Shown here: piece after piece, positions 12,028-17,626 of the stretch | Numbering within the stretch: the first letter of the stretch is position 1 | How the letters are laid out: every line of letters begins with the position of its first letter | Source of the DNA: Natronospirales bacterium | GTDB lineage: Bacteria; Pseudomonadota; Gammaproteobacteria; Natronospirales; REEB76 | Assembly: GCA_021792635.1 (NCBI GenBank) | Contig: JAJYUH010000001.1 | Location: 136,515 to 200,514 of the forward strand | Direction of reading: 5' to 3' | Length of the DNA stretch: 64,000 nucleotides | The notes under the pieces: generated by a model | Databases searched by the model: none | Told to the model about the DNA's origin: nothing | What the model saw: only the letters and a program-made list of their open reading frames with translations | Program-made: the position numbers and the translations under genes

Positions 12028-12143
12028 GCTGGATGCTCCCTTTCAGTATGGATGTTTGAGCGGCATAGGATACGCCGAAGTATATTTTTGTGCGGCCGGT
12101 GGTCGCGTGCGTTTTTTAGGGCGGGTTCCCGCACCCGCGGGCG

Positions 12144-12171
12144 GGGCACTTTTGTTTCGGCAAAAGTGCCC
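12144..12171. repeat. Hairpin of a dispersed intergenic repeat
   Basis: A perfect 11-base-pair inverted repeat: GGGCACTTTTG at 12144-12154 and its complement at 12161-12171, with loop TTTCGG. It sits in a longer conserved-looking element (GCGGGCGGGGCACTTTTG, then CCGGAGCGCGGGTCGCCGA) of a kind found between genes in many gammaproteobacteria. A structurally comparable hairpin lies at 25415-25438. Confidence 0.7.
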
Positions 12172-12463
12172 AAAACCATTCCCCCGGAGCGCGGGTCGCC
12201 GAAGCGGCGGCTGCCCTGCGCACTTCCTTCGCTACGGAGTCCCGCCGACAGGCCATCCGTGGCCTGACGGCGGCAGCGCGAACATCCTGTTCGCGCCCCT
12301 TCGGGCTTAACCTTGCTCAGTCCAGTGCTCGGCTCGCGCTGCGGGTATTCAGAGAACCCGCGAAGCGTGGGCGACTCATGGCTGCGAGCGCTGCACGCTC
12401 GGCGGAATCCACGGGTTTTGATTAGAAAGGGCTTACTCGTTATCGCCTCATCATTTTCGATTT

Positions 12464-12500
12464 ATGTAGGTTGTGGGTGAGGCGCCAGCCGAACCAAACA
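12464..12500. repeat. GTAGGTTG...GGTGAGGCG dispersed repeat, copy 1
   Basis: TGTAGGTTGTGGGTGAGGCG, then CCAGCCGAACCAAAC, matches the reverse complement of 25107-25150 (TAGGTTGCAGGTGAGGCG, then GCAGACGAACCCCAAC) at most positions. Both copies flank the AT-richer accessory islands. Confidence 0.7.
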
Positions 12501-12555
12501 AGTCCGACCAATCTCGTTGGGGCTCGCTTCGCTTGCTCCGTCTTATGCTGCGCAC

Positions 12556-13455
12556 CTACTTTTCTTCTCGCGCAAAAATGGAATAGGCCGGGATCAGGCC
12601 TCTGCGCTGCTGTCGCCAATGCGTGTAATTTATTTTGGTTGTGTCTAGAAACGCGCTACCGTCGCGCAATTTTGTGGTTCCCGTGCCAGTCGTGTTGTAG
12701 GTCTCTGTTCGACGGGAACCAGTATCTTCATTTACTTTGCTACCGACATACTTCCAATCTGCGTCGCGTTTCTGATGGCCTTTAAGCTCTGCAAACATTA
12801 CGTGAATGAATTCAATGCCGGTGTTAGTCCTCTCGAAGCAAAGGACCGTATGCCATCCGCTGTGCCCGTTGTGCGACTCTCCGCCTTTTCCGATCTGAAT
12901 TGTCGCTTTCACTTCAAGGCCAACTTTTGTTGTTTGACAAATCAGATCTGGGTAGCGTTGGTCATGGTTATGCTTGAATGTAGTGCGCTGATCCATCGCA
13001 TCAGTGAATACATTAGAAACAAGCCCACTGAAATTGTTGCCTTGAATCAGTTCCTGTAATGGGCGGCCCACTTCCACGGTCATGTTGCGATTGATCAGGT
13101 AAAAAATCGCTTGCGTTTGATTTAGTGCATCTTCGAGCGCTTGGAACGTAAGTGCCCCCGGCAAGGGTACGCTCCGCCGGAAGTACGCACCGTTGACTTT
13201 CGGTGTGCGCAATCGGTCGGTGCCCTCATAGGCCAGCGTGACCAACGCCTTTACAGGGAAGCCTAGCGCTTCAGATAGCCGCTGCAGTACGCTGATAGAG
13301 AAGTTCTCTCGGCCGTTTTCAACACCGGAAAGATACTGATACGTGATACCGGCCTTTGCTGCAAGCTGTTCAAGGGTAAGGCCTTTTTGTTCGCGCCCTG
13401 CGCGAACGGCGCGGCCGATAAGGAATTGTGCCTCTTGGTTTTCGGAGCTGGTCAT
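12556..13455 (-). CDS. HTH-fused Type II restriction endonuclease candidate
   Basis: A 299-residue protein. Residues about 13-70 form an XRE/Cro-type helix-turn-helix (GLTLEQLAAKAGITYQYLSG, VENGRENFSISVLQRLSEAL). Residues about 100-299 are unlike a regulator and include YPDLI at 168-172 and LEVKAT at 180-185, a good PD-(D/E)XK nuclease signature with Asp170, Glu181 and Lys183. The gene is divergent from a DNA methyltransferase 55 bases away. The simplest reading is a restriction endonuclease whose N-terminal domain also acts as the controller of the pair. Base composition is lower in GC than the flanking housekeeping genes. Recognition sequence is unknown. Alternative: a DNA-binding regulator with a nuclease-like but inactive domain. 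Confidence 0.8.
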   Translation of the reverse strand: MTSSENQEAQFLIGRAVRAGREQKGLTLEQLAAKAGITYQYLSGVENGRENFSISVLQRLSEALGFPVKALVTLAYEGTDRLRTPKVNGAYFRRSVPLPGALTFQALEDALNQTQAIFYLINRNMTVEVGRPLQELIQGNNFSGLVSNVFTDAMDQRTTFKHNHDQRYPDLICQTTKVGLEVKATIQIGKGGESHNGHSGWHTVLCFERTNTGIEFIHVMFAELKGHQKRDADWKYVGSKVNEDTGSRRTETYNTTGTGTTKLRDGSAFLDTTKINYTHWRQQRRGLIPAYSIFAREEK

Positions 13456-13474
13456 ACGTATTGAAGTCTACGGT

Positions 13475-13504
13475 TTGCGTTGGCCCCGGTCTTTCATCTA
13501 TAGT
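13475..13504 (+). promoter_or_regulatory. Predicted promoter giving a leaderless methyltransferase mRNA
   Basis: TTGCGT (13475-13480), 18 bases, then TATAGT (13499-13504). Six bases separate the -10 element from the ATG at 13511, so transcription would start at the A of the start codon. No ribosome-binding sequence is present in front of the gene. An 8-base palindrome ATACGTAT at 13454-13461 overlaps the divergent start codon and is a candidate operator. Confidence 0.55.
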
Positions 13505-13510
13505 TGAAAT

Positions 13511-14467
13511 ATGTCATTTGTTCTGCACAATGGCGACTGCCTCGATTGGCTTGTTTCGCAGCCAGCGAACACCATTTGTGCTGTAGTTACGGACCCGCCA
13601 TATGGCCTGATCGAATTTTCGGAGAAGGAGCGCGGAATCCTACGGAACGGCCATAGCGGAGGTGTTTGGAGGATTCCTCCGAAGCTCGGAGGGGTCGAGC
13701 GCGATCCACTCCCTCGCTTCACAATACTGACTGACGACGAGAAAAAGAAACTGTGGAAGTACATGCGAGATTGGGCTGCGGCGTTGTTGCCTGTGCTCGT
13801 ACCTGGTGCACACGTTTGTGTCGCCGGGAATCCCTCACTTCAATACCTTGTTCAGTCAGCGGTGGCCGAAGCGGGATTCGAGGTTCGATCAGCAATTATG
13901 CGGCTGTATGTTGGCCTGCGAGGCGGCGACCGACCGAAATTAGCTGAGAAGGAATTTCCTGATGTTTGTGTAACGCCTCGCGGGGGTTACGAGCCATGGA
14001 TGCTCTTCAGAAAACCCATCAGTGAGCGAACGGTAGCTGACAACCTTCGGCGATGGGGTACTGGTGGGTTGCGGCGCTTATCAGGTGAAAAGCCACTCCC
14101 AGACGTTATGCAATCTGCACGCACACCCGATGTCGAAACGAACCTATCGAAGCATCCCACAATGAAACCTCAGCATCTGCTGCGGATCTTGGTGCGTGCG
14201 ATGTTGCCTCTGGGCAACGGTGTAATACTTGATACATTTGCTGGTTCCGGGTCAACTCTGGCCGCGGCCGAAGCTGTTGGCTATGACTCGATTGGCATTG
14301 AACTTGACCGACATTACTACGATGAGGCTACTAAACTGATCCCACTATTAGCGAAGCTATACCCAGGATTTACCGGGGACTCACTTGAACAGCCTTCTGC
14401 TCTTCTTGAACCGTCAAATATGCCGCGCAAGCAGTCGAAGAAAACGCGTCAGCACTCACTCCTTTGA
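13511..14467 (+). CDS. DNA methyltransferase (N4-cytosine/N6-adenine, beta class)
   Basis: A 318-residue DNA methyltransferase. Motif IV is DPPYG (28-32) near the N-terminus and the AdoMet-binding motif I is DTFAGSGS (241-248) near the C-terminus; this order is the beta class, which modifies exocyclic amino groups. KHPTMKP before motif I is typical. It is divergent from the HTH-nuclease gene and should protect the host recognition site. No Shine-Dalgarno sequence is visible and a -10 box lies six bases before the ATG, pointing to leaderless translation. The last about 40 residues are polar and Lys/Ser rich. Confidence 0.9.
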   Translation: MSFVLHNGDCLDWLVSQPANTICAVVTDPPYGLIEFSEKERGILRNGHSGGVWRIPPKLGGVERDPLPRFTILTDDEKKKLWKYMRDWAAALLPVLVPGAHVCVAGNPSLQYLVQSAVAEAGFEVRSAIMRLYVGLRGGDRPKLAEKEFPDVCVTPRGGYEPWMLFRKPISERTVADNLRRWGTGGLRRLSGEKPLPDVMQSARTPDVETNLSKHPTMKPQHLLRILVRAMLPLGNGVILDTFAGSGSTLAAAEAVGYDSIGIELDRHYYDEATKLIPLLAKLYPGFTGDSLEQPSALLEPSNMPRKQSKKTRQHSLL

Positions 14468-14645
14468 ATCCTAGCGAACCGATTCTCTCGTCTTCCAATT
14501 ACAAGGTTCTTAGTAGGCCTATCCATTTAGCAAACGATTCGTAAAGACCGGGTCCGTGCGGTAAAGGAGCGATTTGACGGAAGTCGTGGCAACGGAATAG
14601 CCTACCAGTGAGCGTGTATCTGAGGTCCATTGATGAGGTTTTCCT

Positions 14646-15110
14646 ATGTCTTACCCAGTGTTTATAAGCTATTCAACACTTGATTTAGCGGTGGCAAAAT
14701 CATTGCGTGAATGGCTGAGTTCTGCTGGCGCTAGCGTCTTTCTAGCAGAATACTCTGTGCAGCCGAGCCAGCCATTGTCAGCAAGCATTACCAATGCAAT
14801 AAGAGGTTGCGATTTATTTATTCTTCTTTGGAGTAGTAATGCCAAGACATCAGAATGGGTGCCGCAGGAAATTGGTATTGCCAAAGGCGCACAAAAACCA
14901 ATTATGCCAGTGATACTTCACGCAGGCATTGAACTACCGGGATTTGTTCGCGACTTGAAATATCTAGAGCTTTACAAAGATCCGCAGGCGGCGGCGCAGT
15001 GGCTTCGCAATTTTGTTATTACACAGCAAAAGAAAAAAGAAACTGACACCTTGATGCTATTAGGCATAGCTGGGGCTGTCGTATTTGCCTTATTGGCTGG
15101 CGGTAAATGA
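14646..15110 (+). CDS. TIR-domain protein with C-terminal membrane anchor
   Basis: A 154-residue protein. Residues 1-125 form a TIR domain: YPVFISYSTLDLAVAKSLREW, then GASVFLAE, SITNAIRGCDLFILLWSSNA and WVPQEIGIAKGAQKPIMPV. Glu75 in WVPQE sits where catalytic TIR NADases have their glutamate, so NAD-directed activity is plausible. A charged linker (QQKKKETD) is followed by one hydrophobic helix (134-151), predicting a membrane anchor. The gene lies 178 bases after the methyltransferase and has GAGG before its start. TIR proteins commonly act in antiphage defence; no partner sensor is present here, so the role is inferred. Confidence 0.85.
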   Translation: MSYPVFISYSTLDLAVAKSLREWLSSAGASVFLAEYSVQPSQPLSASITNAIRGCDLFILLWSSNAKTSEWVPQEIGIAKGAQKPIMPVILHAGIELPGFVRDLKYLELYKDPQAAAQWLRNFVITQQKKKETDTLMLLGIAGAVVFALLAGGK

Positions 15111-15136
15111 GAGAAGTATTGCGCAGTTTTTGCGTT

Positions 15137-17626
15137 TCAAGTCTCTCGCAGGGTTTCCACCGGCGGCGCATTCAGCACGTGCCGGGTCGCCAGTAATCCG
15201 CTCAATGCCACGATCAGCGTACCCGCGGCGATTCCCACCACCCACACGCGCCAATCCGGATGATAAGGCAACGAAAATACGCGGCGGGCAAGAATCCAGG
15301 CGACCAGTGTGGCGGCGAGCGCACCCAGCAGCCCCGCCGCAAACCCCAGTGCGGCGTATTCCACCGCTGTTGCGGAGCGTATGAGATGCCGCGAGGCACC
15401 CAGTGCGCGCAACACCGCGGCTTCGAAGCAGCGTTCGTCGCGGGTCGCCTGGGCCGCGGCCAGCAGCACCACGATGCCGGCCCCCAGGGTGAACAGAAAC
15501 ACGTATTCCACCGCCAGCGAGGCCTGGTCCATGAGATGGCGTATCTGCTCCAGGATGGAATCCACGTCGAAGATGCTGAGCGCAGGCAATTGCCGCACCA
15601 GGTCCGCGAGGATAACCGCCTTTTGCGGCGGCAGATACACGCTGGTGATCCAATCGGCGGGATAACCGCCAAGCGCGCCGGGAGAGAGTTCCACGAAGAA
15701 GTTCGGTTGAAATGAATCCCAGCGGACTTTGCGCAGGCTCATGATTTTTACCGACAGCGGCGTACCGGCGAGATCGAAGGTAAGCGTGTCGCCGACTTTC
15801 AGATTCAACTGTCTGGCAAAACCCTCCTCGACGGAGGCGAGTGGTTTTCCCGTTTCGCCGGCGTTCCACCAGTGTCCCGCCACGATGGTGTTCGCGGGCG
15901 GCAGCGCCTGGGACCAGCTCAGGTTGGCTTCGCGATCCAGCATGTGCCGGGCGCGCGCATCCCTGAAATGGATTTTTGTGACGGAGACACCGTTAATCGC
16001 GCTGAGGCGGGCACGCACCACGGGATAAAGCGGCGGCGCAGGAATTCCGCGGGAAGTAAAGAATCGTTCAACGCTGGTACGCTGATTTGGCTGGATGTTG
16101 ATAATAAACTGGTTGGGCGCATCCGCCGGCAGCGTGGTGCGCCAGCTTGAAAGCAGATCGCCGCGCACCAGACCCAGCAGCAGCAGCACCATGAGGCCGA
16201 TGCCGAAGGCCGTCATCTGGATGACCGCGTCGCGGCGGTGGCGGCTCAGGTTGGCGAGACCATAACGCCAGCCGGCGCCGGCGCCATGCCGCAGTGGTTT
16301 GAGTATGACGAGCAGCAACCCTGCCCCCAGGCCGAGCATCAGTACCGTGAGCGTGAGGCCCAGCAGCACATACAGCGCGAGCTTGAGCTCGCGCACCTGC
16401 CACCAGGTGAGCGCCAGAGTGGCGAAAATCGCCGCGCCATAGATGACGTAGCCGCGTACCGGCGGCGGTACCAGATCGCGACGCAACACCCGTGCCGGCG
16501 GCGTGTCGCCGAGACGCATGAGGGGCGGCAGGGCGAAACCCATGAGCAGTGCCAGGCCGATGCCGAAGGCGGACAAGGCCGGGATGAAAGACGGGTAAGG
16601 CAGGTGCGCCGGCAGCAGATTTCCGAGTGCCGTCACCAGGCCGAACTGAGCGAGGAAACCGAGCACCGCGCCGCTCACGCCGGCGGCAATGCCGAGCCAC
16701 AGGAGCTCCAGCAGCAGCAACATCTGTACGCGGCGGCGCGTGAGACCCAAGCATTTGAGTACCGCGGCGGTATCGGTGTAGCGCGTGGCGTAGCGACGCG
16801 CCGCCAGCGCCACCGCCACGGCGGAGATGAGCACGCTCACCAGCGCGGCGAGGCCGAGGAAACGCTGCGCGCGGTCAATGGCATCCACCAGCTCGCGCCG
16901 GCTGTCACGTGCATCGCGCATTTCCACGCCGGCGGGCAAATGATGACGGAAAGTTTTTTTGAGTTCACTGATCACATCCGGCGTGCCGGCCATGAGCAGT
17001 TTGTAGTTGACGCGCGAGTTGGCGTTCACGAGTCCGGTGGCGGGAATATCGGCGATATTGAGCAGCACTTTGGGTGCGAGTGATGCAAACCCGAAGCCGC
17101 CGTCGGGGAGATAGGCGATCACGGATGCGATGCGTGCCTTGAGGTTGCCGATCCGCACCTTGTCGCCGACCCTGAGTCCCAGCATGGTGAGTACACGCGG
17201 TTCCATCCACACGGTACCCGGCACGGGGATGATGTGAGTCACGTCCGCGGGGCCGAAGGATACTTGGCTGGTGCGTACCCGGCCGCGCAACGGATAGTCC
17301 GCGCTGACCGCGTGTATATCCGTAAGCACGGAGTGATTGCCGCTGAACAGCACCGTGGGGAAATCCATGACCTGGACGGTGCGCGCGCCGGCGGCGCGGG
17401 CGGTTTGCGCGAACCGGGGTGACAACGGTTCGCCGGAAGACAGCACCAGGTCTGCGGCGAGGCTTTCGCCCGCCTGTTCCTGTATCGCCGTATGCACCCG
17501 GCCGGTGAAGAAACCCACGGCACTCACGGCGGCAAGGGCGAGGGCGAGCGCCACGGCGATGACAGTGAGCTCACCGCTTTTCCAGCCGCGGCGGAACTGC
17601 CGCAGGGAAAGGCGCAGCAGCATCAT
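15137..17626 (-). CDS. ybbP: ABC transporter permease YbbP
   Basis: An 829-residue inner-membrane protein of the FtsX/MacB permease family, with an N-terminal helix, a large periplasmic domain, and two sets of transmembrane segments (about 265-480 and 715-815). Two FtsX-like halves, each with QATRDERCFEAAVLRALGA- or RYTDTAAVLKCLGLT-type signatures, identify it as YbbP. Its start overlaps the end of the ATPase gene ybbA (ATGA). The order tesA, ybbA, ybbP matches E. coli. The substrate is unknown, and family members often extrude or shuttle lipids or lipoproteins. Confidence 0.92.
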   Translation of the reverse strand: MMLLRLSLRQFRRGWKSGELTVIAVALALALAAVSAVGFFTGRVHTAIQEQAGESLAADLVLSSGEPLSPRFAQTARAAGARTVQVMDFPTVLFSGNHSVLTDIHAVSADYPLRGRVRTSQVSFGPADVTHIIPVPGTVWMEPRVLTMLGLRVGDKVRIGNLKARIASVIAYLPDGGFGFASLAPKVLLNIADIPATGLVNANSRVNYKLLMAGTPDVISELKKTFRHHLPAGVEMRDARDSRRELVDAIDRAQRFLGLAALVSVLISAVAVALAARRYATRYTDTAAVLKCLGLTRRRVQMLLLLELLWLGIAAGVSGAVLGFLAQFGLVTALGNLLPAHLPYPSFIPALSAFGIGLALLMGFALPPLMRLGDTPPARVLRRDLVPPPVRGYVIYGAAIFATLALTWWQVRELKLALYVLLGLTLTVLMLGLGAGLLLVILKPLRHGAGAGWRYGLANLSRHRRDAVIQMTAFGIGLMVLLLLGLVRGDLLSSWRTTLPADAPNQFIINIQPNQRTSVERFFTSRGIPAPPLYPVVRARLSAINGVSVTKIHFRDARARHMLDREANLSWSQALPPANTIVAGHWWNAGETGKPLASVEEGFARQLNLKVGDTLTFDLAGTPLSVKIMSLRKVRWDSFQPNFFVELSPGALGGYPADWITSVYLPPQKAVILADLVRQLPALSIFDVDSILEQIRHLMDQASLAVEYVFLFTLGAGIVVLLAAAQATRDERCFEAAVLRALGASRHLIRSATAVEYAALGFAAGLLGALAATLVAWILARRVFSLPYHPDWRVWVVGIAAGTLIVALSGLLATRHVLNAPPVETLRET

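What the first reader, a model, noticed from the sequence alone, without database searches (positions are those of the whole stretch)
12556..14467. Type II restriction-modification pair whose nuclease carries its own HTH controller domain
The minus-strand protein joins an XRE-type HTH (about 13-70) to a domain with PD at 169-170 and EVK at 181-183, and is divergent from a beta-class DNA methyltransferase across a 55-base gap. In most controlled systems the regulator is a separate small C protein. Fusing it to the nuclease would make the nuclease itself the transcriptional switch, and I recognised no standard family name for it.
Basis: partly seen in the sequence, partly recalled or inferred. 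Interest (0 to 1): 0.75.

Follow-up and report, generated by a model that had tools for sequence, protein, structure and literature searches.

The report
Restriction enzyme that regulates itself
This is a DNA-cutting bacterial defence enzyme with its own gene switch built into the same protein, paired with the DNA-modifying enzyme that protects the host; the same two-gene unit, with one conserved 18-base control site between the genes, recurs in at least seven bacterial phyla, whereas only five such switch-cutter fusions, around an unrelated cutter, were described in the one paper found.

Summary
The 299-aa minus-strand protein is an XRE-type HTH (Pfam HTH_3, residues 18-68) joined to a nuclease domain, 55 bp from a divergent beta-class DNA methyltransferase. 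Predicted alone, the nuclease resembles type II restriction enzymes (NaeI Z 10.0, then DpnI, SfiI, SwaI, BglI, EcoRV); E181 and K183 are invariant in 53 of 53 relatives, D170 in 52. The HTH resembles restriction-modification controller proteins (C.BclI, C.AhdI, C.Esp1396I). In public genomes, 53 loci carry the full fusion divergent from the same methyltransferase. Nearly all have an 18-bp palindrome (TTTC-NN-CTATAG-NN-GAAA) in the gap. It is absent from relatives whose nuclease has no HTH and occurs once in the host genome. It overlaps the methyltransferase promoter and sits about 42 bp upstream of the inferred start of the fusion mRNA, a class II activator position. Best reading: an autoregulated type II system in which one protein is controller and nuclease, repressing M and probably activating itself. 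Controller-nuclease fusions are known (PvuII family, Liang and Blumenthal 2013); this is an independent fusion with an unrelated nuclease and a different operator. Activity and cleavage site are untested.

The parts
12556..13455 (-). CR: fused controller-restriction endonuclease, 299 aa
13252..13404 (-). XRE/Cro-C1 HTH of CR (residues 18-68), recognition helix near residues 39-46 with Y39, Q40, S43, E46 invariant in 53 relatives
12559..13212 (-). Nuclease domain (residues 82-299), PD-(D/E)XK fold; catalytic candidates D170, E181, K183
13511..14467 (+). M: beta-class amino-methyltransferase (DPPY ... FAGSGST), 318 aa, probably N6-adenine (inferred from DPPY)
13492..13509 (.). Operator palindrome TTTCATCTATAGTTGAAA (17/18 to the family consensus), with an invariant GTC at 13489-13491
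13499..13504 (+). Inferred -10 of the M promoter (TATAGT) inside the operator; TTGCGT at 13475-13480 is an 18-bp-spaced -35; M mRNA would be leaderless or nearly so
   Evidence: sequence, family pattern; inferred
13465..13470 (-). Inferred -10 of the CR promoter (TAGACT), 17 bp from a poor -35 (AAGACC, 13488-13493) that abuts the operator; CR start codon 9 nt downstream
   Evidence: inferred
12030..15141 (.). Variable island holding CR, M and a TIR gene; in relative G008 (94-96% identical flanks) it is replaced by about 322 bp

Best explanation
A two-gene, mobile type II restriction-modification system whose restriction enzyme carries its own transcription controller. On entry into a new cell M is made at once from its own unobstructed promoter and protects the DNA. 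CR starts low because its promoter has a conserved -10 but a poor -35. As CR accumulates, its HTH dimer binds the single 18-bp palindrome in the gap, which (a) covers the M core promoter and lowers M, and (b) lies about -42 from the CR start, so it probably activates CR. Shown here: domain make-up, predicted nuclease fold, conserved catalytic residues, M/CR co-evolution, conserved operator and promoter geometry. Inferred: DNA binding by CR, the sign of regulation at each promoter, cleavage, and that M and CR share a recognition site.
For: Nuclease fold: best matches NaeI Z 10.0 (rmsd 3.5, 150 aligned), DpnI 7.1, SfiI 7.0, SwaI 6.6, BglI 6.5, HincII, EcoRV. HTH: C.BclI Z 14.2 over 77/77 residues, C.AhdI 13.2, C.Esp1396I 12.4. 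53 loci with the same fusion and divergent M. Operator mean match 16.0/18 in the 53 fused loci; shuffles peak at 9-10 and reach 15 once in 10,600. Operator found only here in 2.71 Mb, one mismatch allowed. CR -10 'TA' at one fixed offset in 46 of 52 loci, at most 11 at any other offset. M-nuclease distance correlation 0.93, Mantel null maximum 0.20. All fused loci fall in one M clade (100/99 support) apart from unfused relatives. A PvuII-family fusion was shown to have both activities (PMC3850674).
Against: No expression, binding, cleavage or methylation data. The -35/-10 assignments are pattern-based; the sigma-70 scan did not call either of them in the window. The -42 position could be neutral rather than activating. 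In the fused clade eight M genes have no CR found, so M can stand alone. The overlap of the operator with the M promoter differs in detail between clades.
Confidence: 0.8

Rival explanations
1. Pure repressor version: CR binds the one operator and only shuts off M; CR rises because the competing M promoter is silenced, not by direct activation (as reported for C.Kpn2I, whose binding represses M and thereby raises the divergent C promoters).
For: One operator in most loci, including the window, overlapping the M core promoter. Kpn2I precedent (PMC6237814).
Against: The CR -10 is held at one fixed distance from the operator in 46/52 loci and its -35 is poor, which fits direct activation better.
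Confidence: 0.3
2. Negative autoregulation: CR represses both genes, keeping the nuclease low.
For: 12 loci have a second palindrome over the CR -10 and start codon (at least 13/18 matches), the usual place for a repressing site.
Against: The second site is absent from the window and from most loci (best 7/18 in the window); the main site is upstream of the CR -35.
Confidence: 0.2
3. The HTH is an extra target-binding (effector) domain of the nuclease, as in type IIE enzymes, with no role in transcription.
For: NaeI, the best fold match, also carries an added DNA-binding domain (established knowledge).
Against: Conserved promoter-located palindrome that tracks presence of the HTH and is unique in the genome; HTH closely resembles R-M controllers.
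Confidence: 0.06
4. The C-terminal domain is catalytically dead or not a nuclease, and CR is only a regulator of an orphan methyltransferase.
For: No assay; several M genes in the clade are solitary.
Against: PD...ExK and the flanking KGGESHNGHSGWH loop are nearly invariant in 53 loci; the fold matches are restriction enzymes.
Confidence: 0.05

Closest known systems
C-REase fusions of the PvuII family (CR.NsoJS138I, Mru1279I, Asp90I, Gsp7428I, Oni7112I; Liang and Blumenthal 2013, PMC3850674)
   Same: Controller HTH fused at the N-terminus of a type II nuclease, divergent from M, binding sites in the gap; dual activity shown for NsoJS138I.
   Different: Nuclease there is an R.PvuII ortholog; here profile search against solved structures, PvuII included, finds nothing and the fold match to PvuII is weak (Z 3.4-3.8 against 10.0 for NaeI). 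The palindrome here lacks the symmetric GTC C-box contacted by C.Esp1396I.
Esp1396I / AhdI / BclI controller proteins (stand-alone C proteins)
   Same: HTH fold (Z 12-14); central TATA of the operator; an operator at the M promoter (Esp1396I).
   Different: Here fused to the nuclease. Positions equivalent to the base-contacting T36 and R46 of C.Esp1396I (PMC4041747) are Q40 and E50 by my own alignment, fitting a different palindrome.
NaeI nuclease domain (and EcoRV/BglI/SfiI group)
   Same: PD-(D/E)XK core, best structural match (Z 10.0).
   Different: 7% identity; NaeI has a C-terminal DNA-binding domain (established knowledge), here an N-terminal XRE HTH.
Ecl18kI / SsoII / EcoRII methyltransferases with fused HTH repressor (PMC12707154)
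   Same: One protein both regulates and performs an R-M enzyme activity.
   Different: There the HTH is on the methyltransferase, here on the nuclease.
Acidiphilium multivorum pACMV5 C + R + M (L009)
   Same: Same M and nuclease families.
   Different: C (742-963) and R (960-1628) are separate genes overlapping by 4 bp, convergent with M.

Membership tests
Type II restriction-modification system | Nuclease of restriction-enzyme fold next to a DNA methyltransferase | tested here: met
Type II restriction-modification system | Nuclease and methyltransferase co-inherited | tested here: met
   53 loci; r = 0.93
Type II restriction-modification system | Both enzymes act on the same site; cleavage blocked by methylation | not testable with these tools
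   needs assay or long-read methylation data
C-regulated R-M system | XRE-type controller domain resembling known C proteins | tested here: met
C-regulated R-M system | Conserved palindromic operator at the C/R and M promoters | tested here: met
C-regulated R-M system | Controller protein shown to bind the operator and change transcription | not testable with these tools
   needs gel shift and reporter assay
Esp1396I-type C-box class | Symmetric GTC/GAC C-box | tested here: not met
   palindrome is TTTCNNCTATAGNNGAAA; GTC only on one flank
C-REase fusion | C-like domain and REase-like domain in one polypeptide | tested here: met
PvuII-family C-REase fusion | Nuclease orthologous to R.PvuII by sequence | tested here: not met
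   no sequence or profile match to any solved chain at E up to 10; structural Z to PvuII only 3.4-3.8
Beta-class amino-methyltransferase | Motif IV (DPPY) before motif I (FxGxG) | tested here: met
   sequence; PF01555
NaeI family | Homology to NaeI | tested here: inconclusive
   structural match Z 10.0 but 7% identity; no sequence match

The most novel reading that the evidence does not exclude
CR works as a sensor of DNA methylation state: its nuclease domain, when engaged on unmethylated target sites, draws CR away from the single operator (or blocks the HTH dimer), so M is derepressed exactly when unmethylated sites appear, and the fusion couples cutting and protection in one molecule without any separate signal.
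Probability: 0.15. Interest if true: 0.75.

Novelty: new variant of a known kind. Interest (0 to 1): 0.5.

Why it matters
Only five controller-nuclease fusions, all with PvuII-like nucleases, are described in the one dedicated paper found. This is an independent and more widespread fusion (53 loci, at least seven phyla) with an unrelated nuclease and its own operator, so merging switch and nuclease can be stable over long evolution. Because one molecule holds both roles, the competitive-dimerisation question raised in 2013 becomes testable in a family with many natural variants and a well-defined single operator. The nuclease family matched no Pfam or NCBIfam model, so its members are probably missed or annotated only as HTH regulators.

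Tried and rejected
Direct pattern search with the window CR in genome contigs and viral contigs found nothing; searching with M instead brought the family in. Phage collection: no match. Sequence and profile search of the nuclease against solved structures: none. Pfam/NCBIfam scans of 60 members: only stray single hits. The first fold search was filled by the HTH, so the nuclease was predicted alone. The degenerate operator (14 fixed bases) scanned over viral contigs gave at least 120 stretches, uninformative. The idea that the R-M target is the CTATAG core was dropped: several loci have CTATAC, CTATAA or TTATAG there. L232 looked like an independent test of the operator but is the same sequence as L052. 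The TIR gene as a third part of the system was rejected: no relative of it near any other family member. The main paper on predicted C-protein binding sites (10.1093/nar/gkn931) is not held, so whether this operator class was listed there is unknown.

Full report
Observation. The two ORFs lie exactly as described: CR on the minus strand, 13455-12556, 299 aa, and M on the plus strand, 13511-14467, 318 aa, with 55 bp between start codons. CR has a strong HTH_3 match at residues 18-68 (E 1.1e-14) and no Pfam or NCBIfam match beyond its HTH end. M is PF01555 N6_N4_Mtase and matches a PADLOC type II methyltransferase model at 295 bits. DPPY precedes FAGSGST, the beta-class order.

Family. Direct searches with CR found little, but M retrieved 71 loci from one-per-species genomes. 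A full-length CR fusion divergent from M, mostly 52-75 bp away, is found in 53 loci including the window. The other fusions are 48-67% identical to the window protein. Organisms named include Pseudomonadota, Verrucomicrobiota, Thermodesulfobacteriota, Kiritimatiellota, Acidobacteriota, Cyanobacteriota, Planctomycetota and one Bacteroidota record; most are metagenome bins, so single phylum labels are soft.

The C-terminal domain has a restriction-enzyme fold. AlphaFold2 gave mean pLDDT 91.2 for the whole protein and 92.0, pTM 0.89, for residues 82-299 alone. With the isolated domain, Foldseek's five best chains are NaeI (three chains), SfiI and SwaI (the best E-value is a modest 0.005). Re-alignment gives NaeI Z 10.0, then DpnI 7.1, SfiI 7.0, SwaI 6.6, BglI 6.5, HincII 6.1, EcoRV 5.6 and, far lower, PvuII 3.8. 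Only NaeI stands above the range the tool calls middling, but the rows down to PvuII are all restriction enzymes apart from the related repair nuclease MutH. E181 and K183 are invariant in 53/53, D170 in 52/53, and the loop KGGESHNGHSGWH is nearly invariant. PD...ExK persists in unfused relatives 20-27% identical. PADLOC's type II nuclease model PDLC03564 matches 26 of 60 members, best 1.1e-7.

The N-terminal domain resembles R-M controllers. C.BclI aligns over all 77 residues at Z 14.2, C.AhdI at 13.2, C.Esp1396I at 12.4; the unrelated regulator ClgR scores equally (14.2), so fold alone does not prove a controller.

The gap holds a conserved operator. Of the 53 fused loci, 52 keep at least 14 of 18 positions of TTTCAACTATAGTTGAAA near M, and the other, L046, shows a one-base deletion in it; a GTC flank is nearly invariant. 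The mean match is 16.0, against a shuffled maximum of 15 in 10,600 trials with a peak at 9-10. The consensus was read from the same loci, so the shuffle test flatters it somewhat. As an internal control, M genes whose neighbouring nuclease has no HTH show at most 12/18, as in shuffles. The site occurs once in the 2.71-Mb host genome with one mismatch allowed. In the window it is 13492-13509.

Promoter geometry. On the CR strand a 'TA' that starts a -10-like hexamer lies at one fixed offset from the operator's GAC in 46 of 52 loci (23 of 28 after removing near-copies), against at most 11 at any other offset. That gives a 17-bp spacer behind a poor -35 (AAGACN), with the CR start codon 9 nt after the -10 in the window and the operator centre near -42, the class II activator position (inference from established promoter knowledge). 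On the M strand TATAGT inside the operator is a -10 candidate with TTGCGT 18 bp upstream in the window. The generic scan did not report these, so they rest on conservation. Twelve other loci carry a second palindrome over the CR start; the window does not.

Evolution. The M tree splits into one well-supported clade holding every fused locus (64 rows, 100/99) and 11 others with no fused HTH. The root is a midpoint, so a single origin of the fusion is consistent, not proven. On Acidiphilium pACMV5 C and R are separate genes overlapping by 4 bp, a plausible pre-fusion arrangement. M and nuclease distances correlate at 0.93. In the closest relative by M, Candidatus Accumulibacter aalborgensis (L010), the 5' half of CR and the left part of the operator are missing while M remains.

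Setting. GC falls to about 47-54% over 12.5-15 kb between flanks of about 60-67%, and a congener with 94-96% identical flanks has about 322 bp in place of window 12030-15141. Of 369 genomes of the class only three had the nuclease, one of them interrupted by a stop. So this is a patchy, probably recently acquired island.

Interpretation. The concept is not new: PvuII-family fusions are published, one with both activities shown, and mentioned in a 2025 review. New here are an unrelated nuclease, a different operator, wide distribution and fixed promoter geometry. Not shown: DNA binding, direction of regulation, cleavage, methylated site.

Noticed in passing
window 14646-15110 (+): A 154-aa TIR-domain protein (PF13676, 1.6e-20; ThsB-like matches) with a hydrophobic C-terminal tail lies just downstream of M in the same low-GC island; no relative near other family members.
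   Followed up: partly
window 12090-12440: Repeated intergenic element next to the island: seven matches in the host genome including itself, and further copies in congeners near the same site.
   Followed up: partly
L104:3690-4304: A 149-kb viral contig encodes a stand-alone relative of the nuclease (42% identical, 204 aa, no HTH) next to genes that look like phage recombination nuclease/ATPase subunits, with a similar loop (KGAESHNAHSGWH); a phage may use this cutter.
   Followed up: partly
L010:4497-5012: Accumulibacter relative: CR truncated from its 5' end through the left half of the operator, M intact, apparently a methyltransferase left without a working partner.
   Followed up: partly
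L017:2887-4140: A second partial copy of the nuclease C-terminal part (68% identity over 81 residues) lies just beyond the intact CR gene.
   Followed up: no
L009:5557-7526: On plasmid pACMV5 near the split C/R/M system: multiubiquitin, E2-like and ThiF-like genes (a bacterial ubiquitin-like cluster).
   Followed up: no
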